Assembly: GCA_017541275.1 (NCBI GenBank)
Contig: JAFXZM010000025.1
Span: forward strand, 1 to 56,929
Direction: 5' to 3'
DNA length: 56,929 bases
From: Oscillospiraceae bacterium
Lineage (GTDB): Bacteria; Bacillota; Clostridia; Oscillospirales; Ruminococcaceae
Position numbers and translations under genes: made by a program
Shown: positions 51,289-56,929 of the stretch, piece after piece
How the letters are laid out: each line of letters begins with the position of its first letter
Numbering within the stretch: position 1 is the stretch's first letter
Notes under the pieces: generated by a model
Databases searched by the model: none
The model's input: only the letters and a program-made list of their open reading frames with translations
What the model was told of the DNA's origin: nothing

Positions 51289-51317
51289 GAAAGCAGGGAA
51301 ACGATCTCCCTGCTTTC
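51289..51317 (-). terminator. Terminator after the PASTA pseudokinase gene
   Basis: A perfect 11-bp stem (51289-51299 with 51307-51317) followed on the minus strand by TTTTTT. It closes the kinase gene set. Confidence 0.9.
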
Positions 51318-51355: not shown

Positions 51356-54064
51356 TCACTCCGTCATTTGGATGGATTCCTCCTGTTCTTCGCCCTCCAC
51401 CTCGACGAGACAGAACTTCTGCCGTTCGCTGCTGCTGACTGTGACAAGCACAATGCCCGGTTTGACGGCACGGAATCTGAACGAATGCGCCTGCTGATCG
51501 GCTTCGATTTCCTGAATAATCCCTTCCTCCGAGCATTCATAGGAAATCTCGCCGATATGGTCTGTTTGCTGCCATTCGATCTGAAGAACAAAGTCCTCAT
51601 CCGGCTGAAGCAGAATGCTCTCCGGCGTGACAGAAAAATCATACGGATCATCAGCAATGTCATAGATGTCGGAAAGCGCGTCGCTGCTTTCGTCTGTTTG
51701 TTTCGACTGTTCGGTGAGCAGCACCGTAATCAGCTTTCCCTTTTCTGCATGGATGCCCTTACCCGGGGTCTGCGTAACGACAATGCCGTCTTCGCATTTG
51801 AAATCCTCGCTGATATATACAGCCATGCGGAAGCCGGCCGCCTCAATGGCTTTTTTAGCGTCCTTTGATTTCATCCCGATCACATCCGGGATTTCACCGA
51901 GTGTTCCGTCAGAGTTGACGGTCAGCAGAACCGCCGTGCCCTGACTGACCTCTGTGCCGGCAGAAATGCTCTGTGCAAGAATCTCTCCTTCCGGCTTTGT
52001 GGGATCGGCGGCATAATCAATTCTTGGTGAGAGGCTGCTGTCCGTGAGCAGGCTGACAGCATCGGCATACTGCTTTCCGACGAGCTCCGGTACAGTCCGG
52101 AGCATTTTTCCTTTGCTGACGGTCAGTGTGACCTGTGTGCCGGCTTCCGCATGCGAACCGGCTTCCGGCTGCTGTGCAGCGATCAGGCCGACGGCGCAGT
52201 CCGTATAATCCTCCTGAAATGCTGCAGTCAGACCGTATATTGCGAGGACAGATTCGGCTTTGCTCTGATTCAGCAGAACAACATTCGGAACGATGACATC
52301 CTCATTTGCAGTTGTGACCTCAATGGAAATTGCATCCGCGGTGCTCTGAACCGTATCGGCAGGCGGGTACTGATTGACGATTGTGCCCTCCGGCTTGCTG
52401 CTGTCATGAACACGTTTCTCAACTCTGACCGGTGTGCCGGTTTGTTCTGCCTGCGACAGAAATTGCTCATAGGTCTGCCCGACATAGTTCTCGACTGTTG
52501 TGTCATGATCCGTAATCGCGTCTTCGGGATCCCGTCCGAGCGATACGGTCAGCTCCAGCAGAGTATCCGTCCGCACCTCCGTATAGGGCTCAATGCTCTG
52601 ACGGATGACACAGTCTTTCTCTACTGAGCGGCTGTATTCCTGCGTCACGGTATATCTCAGACCGAGATTGTCTGCTGCCTGCGAACAGGCAGCGGCATTC
52701 ATCCCGATGAAATTCGGCATGGTAATCAGCTCGCTTCTGACACTGACAATGACACCGACAACGGAATTCTTCGCGGTAAAGCTTCCGCCTGCAATGTTTT
52801 GTGACAGCACCGTATCCGGCTCCAGGCTGTCATCCGTCTGCTTGCCGATGACGCTCAGCAGCAGCTCTGACTGCGCAAGCTGCTGTTGGGCCTCCTGTAA
52901 ATTCAGGCGTCCCAGATCGGGAACAACCGTCATTTCACTCTGCAAGGCGTTGACCGTGTCCGGCTTGGACGATTTCCGGAGATACACAGCAAGGATGACG
53001 CCGCCGGCGATCAGAAGCGCACATCCCAGCGGAATGAGAATTTTCGCCCAGAGCGGCATACCTTTGTTTTTCTTTGTCCGGAGCTGAACCTTTTTGACCC
53101 CGCTCAGTTCCTTGATAAAGGTTTCCATATCCGGCGTGCGGAATTCGCTGCTGATAAAGGACGCATTCCGCATGGCGGCTGCTTTGTCATTTGAAAGTCT
53201 GACGCGGTATGCGCCGAGCGCCTTCAGCTTATCCTTTTTGTGCTTGTCATAATATGCAGACCGCGCATCCGGTTCGGGGAGCGGAACGCCCATCATCATA
53301 TGCATAATCATTGCGGCAGAGAACACATCGTTTGCGGGCAGCAGTTCCGGGGAATCCGGCGATTTCAGGCGCTCCGGCGGAAAGAATTTCCGCTTTTCCT
53401 TCTGATTGATGTCCGTCTGGTCATCGGTCACATTATAGAGTATGTTTTCCAGATACGAATTCAGGAACAGCGTTCCGTCATCGAGAATCATCAGATCAAA
53501 GACAGAAAAGCCGCCGATCACAAAGCCGCTTTCATGGAGCGTGTCAATCGAACGCAGCAGCGGCAGAAACAGCTTTTCGGTTTCCTCCGGAGAAATTTTG
53601 CCCTGCTCCCTGATATATTCCGCGAGGTTTTTTCCTTTTACAAACTCGGTAATGATATAGGCAGTCCCGTTCTTTTCAAAGGACTCGTACACCGCGCTGA
53701 CATTATCCGGCAAATGCTGTTCGGCAAGGAGCTGCGCCTTTTTCTGGAGCATCTCCATGTATTTGTAGAATTCCTTTTCCTTGAGCGCAGTAATCCCCGT
53801 ATCGCCGATGCTGCGTTCGGAGAAGCGGACAGGGCTGTATTCGTAAATGCTGACCTTTTTTGATGTCAGTGCATCCCAGCCGATATATTTGACGAACCAG
53901 CCGTCGATATTCAGCGGCATTCCGACGATATAGCGGTCAGCAAGCACGAGGCCCGGCTCCATGCATCTGGCGTTATCCGGCATCGTTCCCTCTGCAAAGC
54001 CGCATTCCGGACAGATGCACAGGCCGTCATCATACTGTGTCATACACTTCATACAGAATTTCAT
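51356..54064 (-). CDS. Membrane pseudokinase with zinc ribbon and six PASTA domains
   Basis: A 902-residue single-pass protein. The N-terminus is a zinc ribbon (FCMKCMTQYDDGLCICPECG), followed by a Ser/Thr-kinase-like domain (about 40-320), a membrane segment (about 343-366, MPLWAKILIPLGCALLI), six PASTA repeats (about 380-785, such as PNFIGMNAAACSQAAD and PDVIGMKSKDAKKAIE), and a beta domain at the end. The catalytic motifs are lost: no Gly-rich loop, SIYEYSP in place of VAIKEF, FVIGGFSVFDLMIL in place of HRDxxPxN, and FLNSYLENI in place of DFG. PASTA repeats usually bind muropeptides or lipid II outside. This should be an inactive sensor or scaffold working with the active kinase encoded just upstream. 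Confidence 0.9.
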   Translation of the reverse strand: MKFCMKCMTQYDDGLCICPECGFAEGTMPDNARCMEPGLVLADRYIVGMPLNIDGWFVKYIGWDALTSKKVSIYEYSPVRFSERSIGDTGITALKEKEFYKYMEMLQKKAQLLAEQHLPDNVSAVYESFEKNGTAYIITEFVKGKNLAEYIREQGKISPEETEKLFLPLLRSIDTLHESGFVIGGFSVFDLMILDDGTLFLNSYLENILYNVTDDQTDINQKEKRKFFPPERLKSPDSPELLPANDVFSAAMIMHMMMGVPLPEPDARSAYYDKHKKDKLKALGAYRVRLSNDKAAAMRNASFISSEFRTPDMETFIKELSGVKKVQLRTKKNKGMPLWAKILIPLGCALLIAGGVILAVYLRKSSKPDTVNALQSEMTVVPDLGRLNLQEAQQQLAQSELLLSVIGKQTDDSLEPDTVLSQNIAGGSFTAKNSVVGVIVSVRSELITMPNFIGMNAAACSQAADNLGLRYTVTQEYSRSVEKDCVIRQSIEPYTEVRTDTLLELTVSLGRDPEDAITDHDTTVENYVGQTYEQFLSQAEQTGTPVRVEKRVHDSSKPEGTIVNQYPPADTVQSTADAISIEVTTANEDVIVPNVVLLNQSKAESVLAIYGLTAAFQEDYTDCAVGLIAAQQPEAGSHAEAGTQVTLTVSKGKMLRTVPELVGKQYADAVSLLTDSSLSPRIDYAADPTKPEGEILAQSISAGTEVSQGTAVLLTVNSDGTLGEIPDVIGMKSKDAKKAIEAAGFRMAVYISEDFKCEDGIVVTQTPGKGIHAEKGKLITVLLTEQSKQTDESSDALSDIYDIADDPYDFSVTPESILLQPDEDFVLQIEWQQTDHIGEISYECSEEGIIQEIEADQQAHSFRFRAVKPGIVLVTVSSSERQKFCLVEVEGEEQEESIQMTE

Positions 54065-54100
54065 ACGGTACTCCTCGTCTGCAAGCGTTTTTCATTCGCC

Positions 54101-56170
54101 TCAGTTATCAAAAAAGCCTTCCTCGACCATGTTTTCTTCATAGGCCATGACCTTGCTGACATAGCGCTGACTGAAGATCGGGCCGTCATCGGTTTGCTGC
54201 ATATAGATTTCAAACAGGCAGTTCTGGTCTTTCAGTGCCCAGCGGATATCCTGTCCGTCCTCAAAAAAGGGTTCACCGAACTGGCTGACCGCCTGTTTCC
54301 GGACATCCTCATTGAATTCGCTGCCCTGCTCAAACTGGATCATATAAAGCGTATCATCCACGAAATACAGATCAACGGAATCGAAATAATCCTCGCCGTA
54401 CACACCCAGATCAATCGGCACCAGCATCACGGTCTGGCCGTCCTTCCAGCCGGCGTAATCGTTGGTCACATACAGCGTACCGGAGCCGAACAAAAGCTGC
54501 AGGGAAGGCTTTGTCATGCTGAATACGGCGGAATTCATTTTCAGCAGGCCGTTATCGACCGAGAAATTGCCGCCCAGCTCCGGATAGATGATATGCATAT
54601 GCGGATTTTCGGAGGTTTCGCTTCCGCTGTCCGTCTGAGAAGCATCGGTCTGTGAGGAGGAAGGATCACTCTTTGAGGAATTGTCCGCATCTGTCACGGA
54701 GGACGGCTCGGTCTCGCTGCCGGAATCGGCAGAGGACACCGCGGAGGAATCAGCAGTGCTGTTCGCCGGACGGTCAGGGCTGTCTTTGTGCAGGAATAAG
54801 AAGATGCCGGCACCTGCCGCAAGCAGAACCGCAGCGGCAGCCGATGCGAGAATCAGCGGCTTTTTGCTTTTTTTCGCGGGTTCTTCCGGTTTGACCGCTT
54901 CAGCGGGAGCCTGCTCCGGCTGTTTGAACAGCGGCTCGGCCGGTTCGGCAGATGCGGGAATATACGCGGACAGCCGGCGGTCACGGGCAGCCTCCGCCTT
55001 TCCGGGCGCAGCGCTGTTCACGGCAGGGGCATCTGCTGTCTGCTGTGCCGGTTGCTGTGCCGGTGCGACGGTGCTTTCATCCTCCTCATATGTGCCTCTG
55101 GGGATATATTCCGAAAGGCGCGCACCGGGGCGGCTGGGGGAAGTGCTTTGGGGCTTTTCGGTGTATACGGGCATCTGCGTTTTCGGCGTATCATCGCTGA
55201 AATCAATATCAAAATCCGGAACCTGCGCAAGCTCAGCAAAGAGCTGGTCGATCGACTGGATGCGGTTCTCTGCCCTGACGGCAAGACCGTGACGCAGAAA
55301 CGCATCAAATTCCGGTGAAGCATCAAAGCCCAGCTCAGAGGGCATTTTCAGGTTATCATCGAAGACCCGGTCTGTTGCATCGGGCGGAATCGTTCCGGTA
55401 ATGCACTTGTAAACAGTCGCACAGATCGCATAAATATCCGTCCATGCGCCCTGCTTGCCGTGCCTGCGGTACTGCTCCATCGGGGCATAGCCGTGCTTCA
55501 GGATGACTGACAGGCTTTTTTCGTCGGCAAATTCCCGTGCCGCGCCGAAATCCAGCAGCTTGACCTCCTCATCGACCAGCATAATATTGTCGGGACTGAT
55601 GTCTCTGTGGATCAGATTTTTCTCATGTATTTTTTTGAGCGAGCGGAATACCGGCATCAGCAGACAGATTGTATTGTAGCTGGAAATCGTGCCGACCTGC
55701 TTCAGATAATTTTTGAGCGTAATGCCGTCGAGGTACTCCATGACGATGTAAACGGTATGGTTTTCCTCAAAAAAGTCCTTGACGGAAACGATGCCGGGCT
55801 CGTTTGCAAATTTTGCAAGTGTTCTGGCTTCATGCAGAAAATTCTCGCGGCTTTTGGAGAACAGCTCGACAGCCGCATCCGCACTGATGCTCTGCACATC
55901 GTTTGAAACGGTGTTGTTGCGGTTGACCATGCCGGAGGGATAGAATTCCTTGATCGCAACACGCATCTGAAGCAGTGTATCAAGCCCGATATAGGTGATG
56001 CCGAAGCCGCCCTCACCGAGAACGCCGCCGACAAGATATCTGTGATTCAGCATCGCACCGCGGGAGAGCGTGTGCGAGGGAGAAGTGTATGCAGACGGAT
56101 CCCTTCCGCAGCCCGGGCATTGCGGGTTGTCCGCAGGGATCTCATTCATACAGTAGGGACAGTAATTCAT
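54101..56170 (-). CDS. Membrane Ser/Thr protein kinase with N-terminal zinc ribbon
   Basis: A 689-residue kinase. The N-terminal zinc ribbon (YCPYCMNEIPADNPQCPGCG) leads into a full kinase domain (about 43-315) with GEGGFGITY, VAIKEF, HRDISPDN, and DFG in KLLDFGAARE. Then come a Pro/Ala-rich juxtamembrane part, one membrane segment (about 435-455) and a Ser/Asp-rich linker followed by an extracellular beta-rich domain (about 520-680, HIIYPELGGNFSVDNGLLKM) that I do not recognise. It lacks PASTA repeats, which are on the neighbouring pseudokinase. GAGGAG precedes the ATG. It lies 30 bp after an FHA-domain gene and 36 bp before the pseudokinase gene. Confidence 0.93.
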   Translation of the reverse strand: MNYCPYCMNEIPADNPQCPGCGRDPSAYTSPSHTLSRGAMLNHRYLVGGVLGEGGFGITYIGLDTLLQMRVAIKEFYPSGMVNRNNTVSNDVQSISADAAVELFSKSRENFLHEARTLAKFANEPGIVSVKDFFEENHTVYIVMEYLDGITLKNYLKQVGTISSYNTICLLMPVFRSLKKIHEKNLIHRDISPDNIMLVDEEVKLLDFGAAREFADEKSLSVILKHGYAPMEQYRRHGKQGAWTDIYAICATVYKCITGTIPPDATDRVFDDNLKMPSELGFDASPEFDAFLRHGLAVRAENRIQSIDQLFAELAQVPDFDIDFSDDTPKTQMPVYTEKPQSTSPSRPGARLSEYIPRGTYEEDESTVAPAQQPAQQTADAPAVNSAAPGKAEAARDRRLSAYIPASAEPAEPLFKQPEQAPAEAVKPEEPAKKSKKPLILASAAAAVLLAAGAGIFLFLHKDSPDRPANSTADSSAVSSADSGSETEPSSVTDADNSSKSDPSSSQTDASQTDSGSETSENPHMHIIYPELGGNFSVDNGLLKMNSAVFSMTKPSLQLLFGSGTLYVTNDYAGWKDGQTVMLVPIDLGVYGEDYFDSVDLYFVDDTLYMIQFEQGSEFNEDVRKQAVSQFGEPFFEDGQDIRWALKDQNCLFEIYMQQTDDGPIFSQRYVSKVMAYEENMVEEGFFDN

Positions 56171-56200
56171 GTTTTCTCCTCTTTCCTGCTCGGATATGCG

Positions 56201-56929
56201 TTACCAGGAAAACTGTTCGCTGCAAAGCGGGATAAAGAGCAGTTCGGTTTCGCCGAGCAGGATTCTGTCATAGAGCTTCAGCTCCGTCGGCATCAGCAGC
56301 ATTTGCCTGTTGACGTAGATAAATGTTTTGCTCTCTGTGCTTTGCAGAAAGAATTTTTTGTTGAGCGGGTCATAGAGCAGTACAGCCTGTGCGCCGCGGG
56401 AAACGGTTTTGTCTCCGTGCAGGTCGATAGTCACCATATGCTCGGCATCGGAGCGGCCGATGGTGCTCTGGGTATCGGTGACGGCGAACACTTTTCCCTT
56501 AAAATTCGGAGAAACAGCAACAAGCCAGCCGAGTGTCAGACCGTCAGCCAGCTCATCGAAAATGATCTGTGTTGCACCCTCATCATCCTGCTGTGAGGCA
56601 GCTTTTTCCTTTGCATCCTCAAGATTTCCGGTGAAATTGACCTCATTGATATAGGATGTCAGCGAAGGCTCCTGCGGAGGCTGAACCGGCTGAACGGGCT
56701 GAACAGGAGCAGGTGCGGGTACCTGGGCAGGCTCCGGTGCAGGCTCCGGTGCAGGCTCCGGTGCGGGCTGCACAGCCGGAACAGACTCAGCCGTGACTTT
56801 CGGATGACCGCATCGCATACAGAAATTCCCGACGACAACTGTTCCGCATACACATCTCCATGCACTGTCAGAAACCGGAACAGGCTCCGGCTGCGGTGCG
56901 GCGACGGGCTCCGGCTGCGGTGCAGCGAC
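56201..56929 (-). CDS. Zinc-ribbon and FHA-domain protein, 5' part outside window
   Basis: The frame stays open to the right edge, so the start lies outside. The visible 242 residues begin with Pro/Glu/Ala repeats (AAPQPEPVAAPQPEPV), then a zinc ribbon (RCVCGTVVVGNFCMRCG), a second Pro-rich stretch (PAPEPAPEPAPEPAQVPAP and VQPVQPVQPP), a short helix and a C-terminal FHA domain (about 140-240) with STIGRSDAEHM, KTVSRGAQAVLLY and FIYVNRQ. FHA domains bind phosphothreonine, so it is a probable substrate or reader of the kinase encoded 30 bp downstream. The ATG at 56818 falls inside the zinc ribbon and cannot be the start. Confidence 0.88.
   Translation of the reverse strand, partial: VAAPQPEPVAAPQPEPVPVSDSAWRCVCGTVVVGNFCMRCGHPKVTAESVPAVQPAPEPAPEPAPEPAQVPAPAPVQPVQPVQPPQEPSLTSYINEVNFTGNLEDAKEKAASQQDDEGATQIIFDELADGLTLGWLVAVSPNFKGKVFAVTDTQSTIGRSDAEHMVTIDLHGDKTVSRGAQAVLLYDPLNKKFFLQSTESKTFIYVNRQMLLMPTELKLYDRILLGETELLFIPLCSEQFSW

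What the first reader, a model, noticed from the sequence alone, without database searches (positions are those of the whole stretch)
51356..56929. Three-protein envelope signalling set: FHA protein, active kinase and PASTA pseudokinase
Seen: three same-strand genes 30-40 bp apart encode an FHA protein, an active Ser/Thr kinase with an unrecognised extracellular domain, and a kinase-like protein with six PASTA repeats. In usual Firmicutes PrkC/StkP, the kinase and the PASTA repeats are one protein and a PP2C phosphatase gene is adjacent. Here the output (active kinase), the input (PASTA) and the reader (FHA) are on separate chains and no phosphatase is visible. Inference: the pseudokinase senses cell-wall fragments and switches on the kinase, which signals to the FHA protein.
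Basis: partly seen in the sequence, partly recalled or inferred. Interest (0 to 1): 0.75.

Follow-up and report, generated by a model that had tools for sequence, protein, structure and literature searches.

The report
Kinase switch of bacterial secretion system
The three signalling genes are the tail end of a conserved operon for a type VII-like protein secretion system found mostly in rumen bacteria, so they more likely switch that machine on and off by phosphorylation than form a stand-alone cell-wall alarm.

Summary
In detail: FHA protein, intact Ser/Thr kinase and six-PASTA pseudokinase, 30 and 36 nt apart, then a terminator-like hairpin. The FHA gene is cut by the contig end, so the "missing phosphatase" is an artefact. 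In relatives two PP2C genes, a WXG100-like gene and a two-gene EssC-type ATPase precede FHA: 13 of 13 orthologous loci whose contigs reach that far, second PP2C in 12. Seven further genes, one a WXG100, lie before the ATPase. The set is the tail of a ~15-gene T7SS-like operon. The pseudokinase lacks the ATP-binding Lys and catalytic Asp in 15 of 15 orthologues but is constrained (dN/dS 0.065); PASTA number is 6, 4 or 0. A canonical PrkC exists separately; EssB was not found. Against: 2 of 10 such ATPase loci lack the set, one has a dead kinase; the own genome's ATPase was not seen. Best reading: a phospho-switch like the T6SS PpkA/PppA/Fha pathway, pseudokinase as membrane partner. New variant of a known kind; mechanism inferred.

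The parts
56201..56929 (-). FHA-domain protein (gene 13 of the operon), 5' end cut by the contig end; full-length orthologues start with a Cys-rich zinc-ribbon-like stretch and a Pro/Ala-rich linker
   Evidence: Pfam FHA E 8.8e-5; 14 sequences aligned: GR, SR and a Thr in the TQIIF-type motif before the FHA domain conserved in 14 of 14
54101..56170 (-). membrane Ser/Thr kinase, 689 aa, intact motifs (gene 14)
   Evidence: Pfam Pkinase E 3.7e-31; Lys, HRD..N and DFG intact in 15 of 15 sequences; best PDB sequence match PpkA E 6.9e-48
55259..56032 (-). kinase domain of gene 14
   Evidence: Pfam boundaries
54101..54610 (-). extracellular alpha+beta domain of gene 14, no known family
   Evidence: no Pfam/NCBIfam match; AlphaFold2 block means of pLDDT 63-94 for residues 531-689; 14-sequence profile without a PDB match at E<=1
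51356..54064 (-). PASTA pseudokinase, 902 aa (gene 15, last gene of the operon)
   Evidence: six PASTA; ATP-binding Lys and HRD Asp absent in 15 of 15 sequences; dN/dS 0.065 for residues 1-330
53105..53932 (-). kinase-fold domain of the pseudokinase (about residues 45-320)
   Evidence: AlphaFold2 model; target-normalised TM-score 0.68 to S. aureus PknB 4eqm
51710..52927 (-). six PASTA repeats (residues 380-785)
51395..51646 (-). C-terminal all-beta domain (about residues 807-890); a similar C-terminus is kept in the PASTA-less orthologue L114
   Evidence: DSSP of the model; L114 C-terminus
51289..51317 (-). intrinsic-terminator-like hairpin 39 bp after the pseudokinase stop (13 pairs, loop of 3, T6)
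   Evidence: 2 terminator-like sites in the 701-base stretch, mean 0.5 in shuffles

Best explanation
The three genes are the regulatory tail of a type VII-like secretion operon of about 15 genes. Order in relatives: ~195-aa coiled-coil-like protein - large protein of 477-1061 aa (LXG-like by eye, no family match) - TPR protein - two small proteins (one a sub-threshold WXG100 match) - WXG100 - ~300-aa protein - EssC-type ATPase (two genes) - WXG100-like - PP2C - PP2C - FHA - kinase - PASTA pseudokinase. SHOWN: gene order, domains, motif state, purifying selection. INFERRED: the membrane kinase phosphorylates threonines on the apparatus and on the FHA protein (its invariant pre-FHA Thr is the first candidate). 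The FHA domain docks on the phospho-site and sets assembly or firing of the ATPase, and the two PP2Cs reset the switch, as PpkA/PppA/Fha do for the type VI system. The pseudokinase, held in the membrane with a wall-side PASTA stalk, acts as allosteric partner, phospho-acceptor or scaffold of kinase and FHA. It passes on envelope state, or only the machine's position, without catalysis. The PASTA repeats are more likely an adjustable stalk or wall anchor than the essential sensor.
For: Order in 13 of 13 pseudokinase-anchored loci with enough upstream DNA (second PP2C in 12; in L128 the pseudokinase is cut after 51 residues by the contig end); identity 48-95%. Of 13 stretches read upstream of the ATPase, 12 have seven further shared genes (gene 1 in 11, the twelfth contig starting inside a gene-2 copy); the 13th, L170, has no DNA there. 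From the ATPase side: of 10 split-ATPase genes in 9 of 396 family genomes, 7 are followed by FHA, kinase and pseudokinase, 1 contig ends after the kinase, 2 lack the set. TIGR03928 E 1.7e-137 and 5.4e-35 for the two ATPase genes; WXG100 over its cut-off. Best PDB sequence match of the kinase, and of a four-sequence pseudokinase profile, is PpkA; Foldseek agrees for the kinase. FHA residues GR/SR and a Thr with Ile/Val/Leu/Met at +3 in 14 of 14. dN/dS 0.065 (pseudokinase domain) and 0.030 (kinase domain) for window against L112. PASTA count 6 in 12, 4 in 2, 0 in 1 of 15. Precedent: kinase, phosphatase and FHA genes in T7SSc-j (PMC11217815).
Against: Nothing shows phosphorylation, secretion or expression. 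In the own genome the ATPase was not found, only a weak match (E 1.2e-8), probably FtsK; this fits the contig break but does not prove that the operon is whole here. Two split-ATPase loci (G283, G412) have no FHA/kinase/pseudokinase set; G283 has a PP2C and a different kinase instead. In G424:C63 both kinase genes have lost motif residues, only one PP2C was found and the FHA-like protein is recognised by my profile but not by Pfam. By fold, the best kinase match of the pseudokinase is S. aureus PknB; PpkA is not among the 50 shown. PpkA as nearest solved structure may reflect which bacterial kinases have been solved. Both ATPase halves score below the T7SS equivalog cut-off.
Confidence: 0.68

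Rival explanations
1. One reading: the PASTA pseudokinase binds cell-wall fragments and thereby activates the neighbouring kinase, which signals to the FHA protein; a split PrkC serving the envelope in general, not a secretion system.
For: PASTA repeats are known wall-binding modules (recalled); a kinase gene precedes the pseudokinase in all 13 loci readable to the ATPase and in L123.
Against: Conserved secretion operon; separate canonical PrkC in 13 of 15 genomes; PASTA number 6, 4 or 0.
Confidence: 0.15
2. The pseudokinase is a structural subunit of the translocon, the functional counterpart of EssB/YukC, and the FHA protein stands for the FHA domains that the split ATPase lacks; binding is phosphorylation-independent as in T7SSb. 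(Odds overlap with the best explanation: a scaffold role is common to both.)
For: EssB is also a one-TM pseudokinase and binds EssC FHA domains (passages of PMC9600267); no EssB (PF10140) in 30 genus genomes or in 15 genomes with the module (G011 = G030 is in both lists), control B. subtilis rings; no FHA match on the split ATPase; G424:C63 keeps both genes though both kinases look dead.
Against: FHA GR/SR residues are kept in 14 of 14 and the kinase motifs in 15 of 15, whereas EssC FHA domains lack the phosphothreonine site (PMC11217815); two ATPase loci have no pseudokinase; EssB is not among the 60 PDB matches shown for the pseudokinase profile (1,263 found), nor the 50 shown by fold (2,000 aligned).
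Confidence: 0.3
3. The kinase phosphorylates the pseudokinase tail, which then recruits the FHA protein as a brake, as PknB - MviN - FhaA in mycobacteria. (A special case of the best explanation, so the odds overlap.)
For: Same trio (active kinase, pseudokinase, FHA protein) with a described order of events in PMC12599244 section 8.
Against: I did not search the pseudokinase juxtamembrane part systematically for a conserved FHA-type Thr; none stood out among the invariant columns listed.
Confidence: 0.25
4. The pseudokinase is a decaying duplicate without function.
For: Motifs lost; PASTA number variable.
Against: dN/dS 0.065 in the kinase-like domain, 0.173 over PASTA; present in 13 of 13 loci, in one cut by the contig end; own conserved signature (GGF, EY.P) in 15 of 15.
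Confidence: 0.03

Closest known systems
T7SS variants T7SSc-T7SSj of Garrett, Higginson and Palmer 2024 (PMC11217815; read: abstract, Results parts 1 and 2 of 3, passages of the Discussion)
   Same: EssC/EccC-type ATPase plus WXG100 protein in one cluster, often with a membrane kinase and a PPM/PP2C phosphatase, and in e, f and j a separate FHA protein
   Different: Here the ATPase is two genes without an FHA match, no YukD was found at the locus, most loci have two PP2Cs, the FHA protein has a Cys-rich start and no DUF6382 match, and a PASTA pseudokinase follows the kinase. The words PASTA and Ruminococc- have 0 occurrences in the main text. I could not see its supplementary trees.
T6SS threonine-phosphorylation pathway PpkA-PppA-Fha (PMC3953482; read: abstract and list of sections)
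   Same: Membrane kinase, PP2C and FHA protein encoded with a secretion machine; best PDB sequence match of the kinase is PpkA (the table does not name the organism)
   Different: Other secretion machine, Gram-positive envelope, PASTA pseudokinase and usually a second PP2C added
PrkC/StkP/PknB PASTA kinases with PP2C
   Same: Kinase fold plus PASTA repeats outside, PP2C in the neighbourhood
   Different: Intact kinase and PASTA are on separate proteins; a canonical PrkC is present elsewhere; NCBIfam equivalog cut-off 450 not reached (243.9 and 157.8 bits)
EssB/YukC of T7SSb (PMC9600267, PMC10765036; passages read)
   Same: Single-TM pseudokinase of a T7SS, no catalytic residues
   Different: No PF10140 match; PASTA ectodomain; PpkA and PknB are the matches by sequence and fold
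MviN pseudokinase - FhaA - PknB of mycobacteria (PMC12599244, section 8 read)
   Same: Active kinase, membrane pseudokinase and FHA protein as one circuit
   Different: Linked to peptidoglycan synthesis, no secretion system or PASTA mentioned in that section; Actinobacteria

Membership tests
Type VII secretion system (any subtype) | EssC/EccC-type FtsK ATPase in the cluster | tested here: met
   In relatives, not in the window: TIGR03928 E 1.7e-137 and 5.4e-35 for the two genes, 459.9 and 120.4 bits, both below the equivalog cut-off of 778.4
Type VII secretion system (any subtype) | WXG100 protein in the cluster | tested here: met
   PF06013 36 bits over cut-off 27.3 for L052:2494-2799; a second at 21.9 bits, below the cut-off, between ATPase and PP2C
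Type VII secretion system (any subtype) | YukD/EsaB ubiquitin-like protein (all but T7SSd) | tested here: not met
   PF08817 in 1 of the 15 module genomes, on a contig other than the operon's (G037:C6 against C33); profile comparison of the ATPase N-terminus with five local YukD-like proteins 0.7%. Control B. subtilis and G001 ring, but the YukD-like gene of G006 was missed, so sensitivity is limited.
T7SSb | EssB/YukC | tested here: not met
   PF10140 in 0 of 30 genus genomes and 0 of 15 module genomes; control B. subtilis rings
T7SSd, e, f, i, j | N-terminal FHA domains on TsxC | tested here: not met
   no FHA match on the ATPase of L036 and L113
T7SSe, f, j | DUF6382-FHA protein TsxJ | tested here: not met
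   FHA proteins of the window and L036 match FHA but not DUF6382
T7SSc | VWA protein TscE and EspG-like TscG beside kinase and PPM | tested here: inconclusive
   no VWA match among the operon genes scanned; the EspG-like fold was not tested
T7SSc-T7SSj | Place of the ATPase in the published TsxC tree | not tested
   reference sequences and supplements not at hand; locally 18 split ATPases form one clade apart from 8 other T7SS-type ATPases of the genus, with long-branch warnings
PrkC/StkP-type PASTA kinase | Intact kinase and PASTA on one chain | tested here: not met
PrkC/StkP-type PASTA kinase | PP2C gene in the same operon | tested here: met
   PP2C before FHA in 13 of 13 readable loci, separated from the pseudokinase by FHA and kinase
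EssB | PF10140 similarity | tested here: not met
T6SS threonine-phosphorylation pathway | PpkA-like kinase, PP2C and FHA protein encoded together with a secretion machine | tested here: met
T6SS threonine-phosphorylation pathway | The machine is a T6SS | tested here: not met
   Pfam scans of the operon genes of L036, L052, L113 and L159 show T7SS-type and no T6SS families; it may work like the pathway but is not a member
T6SS threonine-phosphorylation pathway | Phosphorylated apparatus protein or FHA protein bound through pThr | not testable with these tools
   needs phosphoproteomics or binding assay

The most novel reading that the evidence does not exclude
An undescribed T7SS subtype of rumen Ruminococcus relatives whose ATPase has no FHA domains. 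Control lies in a stand-alone phospho-circuit in which a catalytically dead, wall-anchored PASTA pseudokinase has taken the membrane place of EssB and gates a PpkA-like kinase and FHA reader: a Gram-positive counterpart, perhaps convergent, of the T6SS trigger.
Probability: 0.3. Interest if true: 0.8.

Novelty: new variant of a known kind. Interest (0 to 1): 0.6.

Why it matters
Whether T7SSs are switched by threonine phosphorylation is an open suggestion (Discussion passage of PMC11217815). This operon holds a whole candidate circuit (kinase, phosphatases, FHA reader, pseudokinase) in fixed order beside the ATPase, with one invariant candidate phospho-site, so the question becomes testable with a few purified proteins. 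[quoted passage not shown]

Tried and rejected
Phosphatase absent: rejected. Ubiquitin-like YukD domain at the N-terminus of the split ATPase: looked plausible by eye, no support (hhalign probability 0.7%; one unrelated PDB match at E 0.36). EssB homology: no support. One origin of all PASTA pseudokinases: in the 53-row tree the 15 orthologues join the G011:C52 and G028 pseudokinases (99/94), but treekit warns of long branches and the two reduced trees do not settle it; left open. Identity of the kinase ectodomain: the 50 Foldseek matches shown for the whole model are kinases and the ectodomain profile finds nothing; left open. Order-level search for the split ATPase: 0 of 394 genomes, without a positive control, so it shows nothing.

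Limits: a first gene list by longest ORF picked some antisense ORFs and was replaced by my own codon-usage caller, so start codons are approximate. In one search L120 gave no genes and L125 only two; both, and L114, L118, L122, L123, were recalled with their own codon usage. Most family labels come from small local profiles; Pfam or NCBIfam was run only on the proteins listed. dN/dS is a simple Nei-Gojobori estimate on one usable pair; the second pair (window-L113: 0.092 and 0.058) is near saturation. The AlphaFold model of the kinase is poor overall (mean pLDDT 54.9); that of the pseudokinase is better (74.5). The scan uses short patterns and is not exhaustive: it missed G352 and G401 loci found (or their genomes are not in that collection). 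Rows dropped: L126 and L127 are paralogous loci (G028:C560, G011:C52), not counted as orthologues; L122 and L123 end at a contig edge and are left out of the 13; L128 holds only 51 residues of the pseudokinase and is out of the motif table; L112, L036 and L052 are the same genome and counted once. L114, L122, L123 and L186 were not in the ATPase tree. G364, G115 and G323 were taken as the loci L113, L115 and L116 because contig number and coordinates agree.
Full report
WHAT IS THERE. The window is the whole contig C50 of a 2.04-Mb, 66-contig, 75.6%-complete assembly. At its right end three minus-strand genes encode an FHA protein (56201-56929, cut by the contig end), a 689-aa kinase (54101-56170) and a 902-aa protein with six PASTA repeats and a kinase-like domain (51356-54064). 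Gaps are 30 and 36 nt, with purine-rich ribosome-binding-like stretches before both starts. A terminator-like hairpin (13 pairs, T6) begins 39 bp after the last stop. The contig ends inside a VAAPQPEP-type repetitive linker of the FHA gene, a likely reason for the assembly break (inference).

CONTEXT FROM RELATIVES. In a same-genus genome (G011; its named record JAFWVK01 is a MAG from sheep omasum) the pseudokinase and kinase orthologues are both 86% identical. In front of FHA lie two PP2C genes, a WXG100-like gene and an EssC-type ATPase in two genes. One pattern-based scan of the genome collection (84,980 species) with a four-sequence pseudokinase alignment gave 17 loci, 15 of them orthologues at 48-95% identity (one a 51-residue fragment). 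All 15 titles are of MAGs or uncultured isolates; four name a source, all ruminant foregut (L112, L113, L114, L116), and seven bear RUG names (rumen uncultured genomes, recalled). Of the 15, 13 have contigs long enough to show the ATPase. All 13 have ATPase - ATPase - WXG100-like - PP2C - (PP2C) - FHA - kinase - pseudokinase; the second PP2C is missing only in L124, and in L128 the contig ends inside the pseudokinase. L122 and L123 are cut just before or inside the kinase. I read 13 stretches upstream of the ATPase. One (L170) has no DNA there; the other 12 share seven genes: a ~195-aa protein with sub-threshold coiled-coil matches (11 of 12; in L165 the contig starts inside the next gene), a protein of 477-1061 aa (LXG-like by eye, no family match over a cut-off in a form I trust; sometimes two copies), a TPR protein, two small proteins, a WXG100 protein and a ~300-aa protein without a match. 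Downstream of the pseudokinase the genes differ from locus to locus by eye. This is one ~15-gene operon whose last three genes are the finding.

CHECK FROM THE OTHER SIDE. Searching 396 genomes of the family with the split ATPase gave 10 genes in 9 genomes. Four are loci already known (G364, G011, G115, G323 = L113, L112, L115, L116, by coordinates). Of the six others, G352 and G401 have the full set with intact kinase; G424:C63 has an FHA-like protein (my profile only; Pfam finds nothing), one PP2C, and two kinase genes that have both lost motif residues; the contig of G424:C36 ends after an intact kinase; G283 and G412 lack the set. So 7 of 10 have the set (one of them degenerate), 1 cannot be judged and 2 do not. 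G283 has instead a VWA protein, a PP2C, a different kinase with intact motifs and a protein with repeated NPTPxR motifs; the same-genus G018 locus looks alike before its contig ends. The machine therefore exists with other regulatory sets. An order-level search found nothing in 394 genomes but had no positive control. In a tree of 26 ATPases the 18 split ones form one clade, with long-branch warnings. In the own genome no such ATPase was found, only a weak match (E 1.2e-8) that is probably FtsK.

OTHER LOCI WITH THE SAME MODULE. G001:C8 has a one-gene EssC (TIGR03928 977 bits, over its cut-off, with FHA matches), YukD, two WXG100-like proteins, then PP2C - PP2C - FHA - kinase - PASTA kinase; there the PASTA protein keeps all kinase motifs. 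G009:C25 has PP2C - PP2C - FHA - kinase - PASTA kinase (active motifs) without an ATPase in the flanks read. G011:C52 and G028:C560 have further degenerate PASTA kinases next to intact kinases. Loss of activity in the PASTA partner is therefore a property of some lineages of a wider module. Whether it happened once is open.

THE PSEUDOKINASE. In 15 of 15 sequences the beta-3 Lys is Tyr or Asn and the HRD Asp is gone (GGF). The DFG Asp is absent in 9 and present as DY in 6. In the 15 kinases compared, Lys, HRD..N and DFG are intact. Between window and L112 (G011), dN/dS is 0.065 for the pseudokinase domain, 0.173 for PASTA and 0.030 for the active kinase domain: constraint, not decay. The model keeps the kinase fold (target-normalised TM-score 0.68 to PknB 4eqm). 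PASTA units number six in 12, four in 2 and none in 1 of 15; three more relatives have six, four and at least five (L181, L186, L183). The PASTA-less one (L114) keeps the hydrophobic segment and a similar C-terminus. This is the main evidence against PASTA ligand binding as the indispensable input.

THE FHA PROTEIN AND PHOSPHATASES. GR and SR are kept in 14 of 14 FHA sequences; a Thr lies in a motif such as DEGATQIIFDE before the FHA domain in 14 of 14, with Ile, Val, Leu or Met at +3. That GR/SR contact phosphothreonine, that such +3 contexts suit FHA domains, and that Thr-containing tails of GarA/OdhI behave this way is recalled and comes from no call. In L036 both PP2Cs show NED/QED and DGxG near their starts; the motif names are recalled.

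NOT PrkC, NOT EssB. A canonical PrkC (752 aa, intact motifs, PASTA) with a PP2C just upstream is in the own genome. NF033483 is over its cut-off in 13 of 15 module genomes; G042 and G044 are the two without. EssB (PF10140) was found in 0 of 30 genus genomes and 0 of 15 module genomes (G011 = G030 is in both), with B. subtilis as positive control.

MECHANISM. By sequence the best PDB match of the active kinase is PpkA (E 6.9e-48; next StkP 4.2e-23), and PpkA is also the best match of the pseudokinase profile (1.3e-21); by fold it is first for the kinase but not among the 50 shown for the pseudokinase, where PknB leads the kinases. In Agrobacterium PpkA phosphorylates TssL, and Fha binding to that phosphothreonine activates type VI secretion (abstract of PMC3953482). 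Garrett et al. suggested phospho-control for T7SS variants with kinase, phosphatase and FHA genes (PMC11217815). In mycobacteria PknB phosphorylates the MviN pseudokinase tail and FhaA is recruited (PMC12599244, section 8). I infer a reversible phospho-switch on the secretion machine, the pseudokinase being its membrane partner, acceptor or scaffold. Steps shown: genes, order, motif state, constraint. Steps inferred: every phosphorylation, binding and secretion event.

NOVELTY. The kind is known (T7SS with phospho-signalling genes). The variant - split FHA-less ATPase, PP2C pair, FHA protein with a Cys-rich start, PpkA-like kinase and PASTA pseudokinase as one operon - matches none of T7SSc-j as described in the sections read; the EspG-like component of T7SSc was not tested. 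Nine paper searches ran; no listed title or start of abstract, and none of the passages I read (PMC11217815, PMC12599244, PMC9600267, PMC10765036, PMC12419801), describes it.

Noticed in passing
L048:8332-10749 (G000:C28) and orthologues: A second, separate zinc-ribbon-type pseudokinase (ILIREY, HRGLSPET, GFC in place of the motifs; PASTA-like repeats in the own copy) is widespread in the genus: 23 of 28 loci checked, being 22 genes in 22 of the 30 genus genomes, carry it, all without the HRD Asp and with Arg for the beta-3 Lys. It lies outside the secretion operon.
   Followed up: partly
L114:10001-11407: Orthologous pseudokinase without any PASTA repeat that keeps the hydrophobic segment and a C-terminus like that of the others.
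   Followed up: partly
L183:9577-14175 (G424:C63): A related operon in which both the kinase and the PASTA kinase have lost catalytic motif residues.
   Followed up: no
L040:1261-12353 (G028:C560): Tandem array of five zinc-ribbon-type kinase genes: three with PASTA (one of them degenerate), one without, one cut by the contig end.
   Followed up: no
L184:9862-10365 and L098:17599-18033: Sister secretion loci carry a small protein with NPTPxR-type motifs (repeated in L184) after the WXG100-like gene, a possible multi-site phosphorylation substrate where the FHA/kinase set would be.
   Followed up: no
L184:3154-4707: VWA-domain protein between gene 7 and the ATPase in the sister locus; L098:11063-12550 holds a protein of similar size in the same place.
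   Followed up: no
L049:8765-10889 (G000:C52): Another kinase (Pkinase over its cut-off) next to a protein that looks like a PP2C by eye and zinc-ribbon-like proteins in the own genome, not part of this operon.
   Followed up: no
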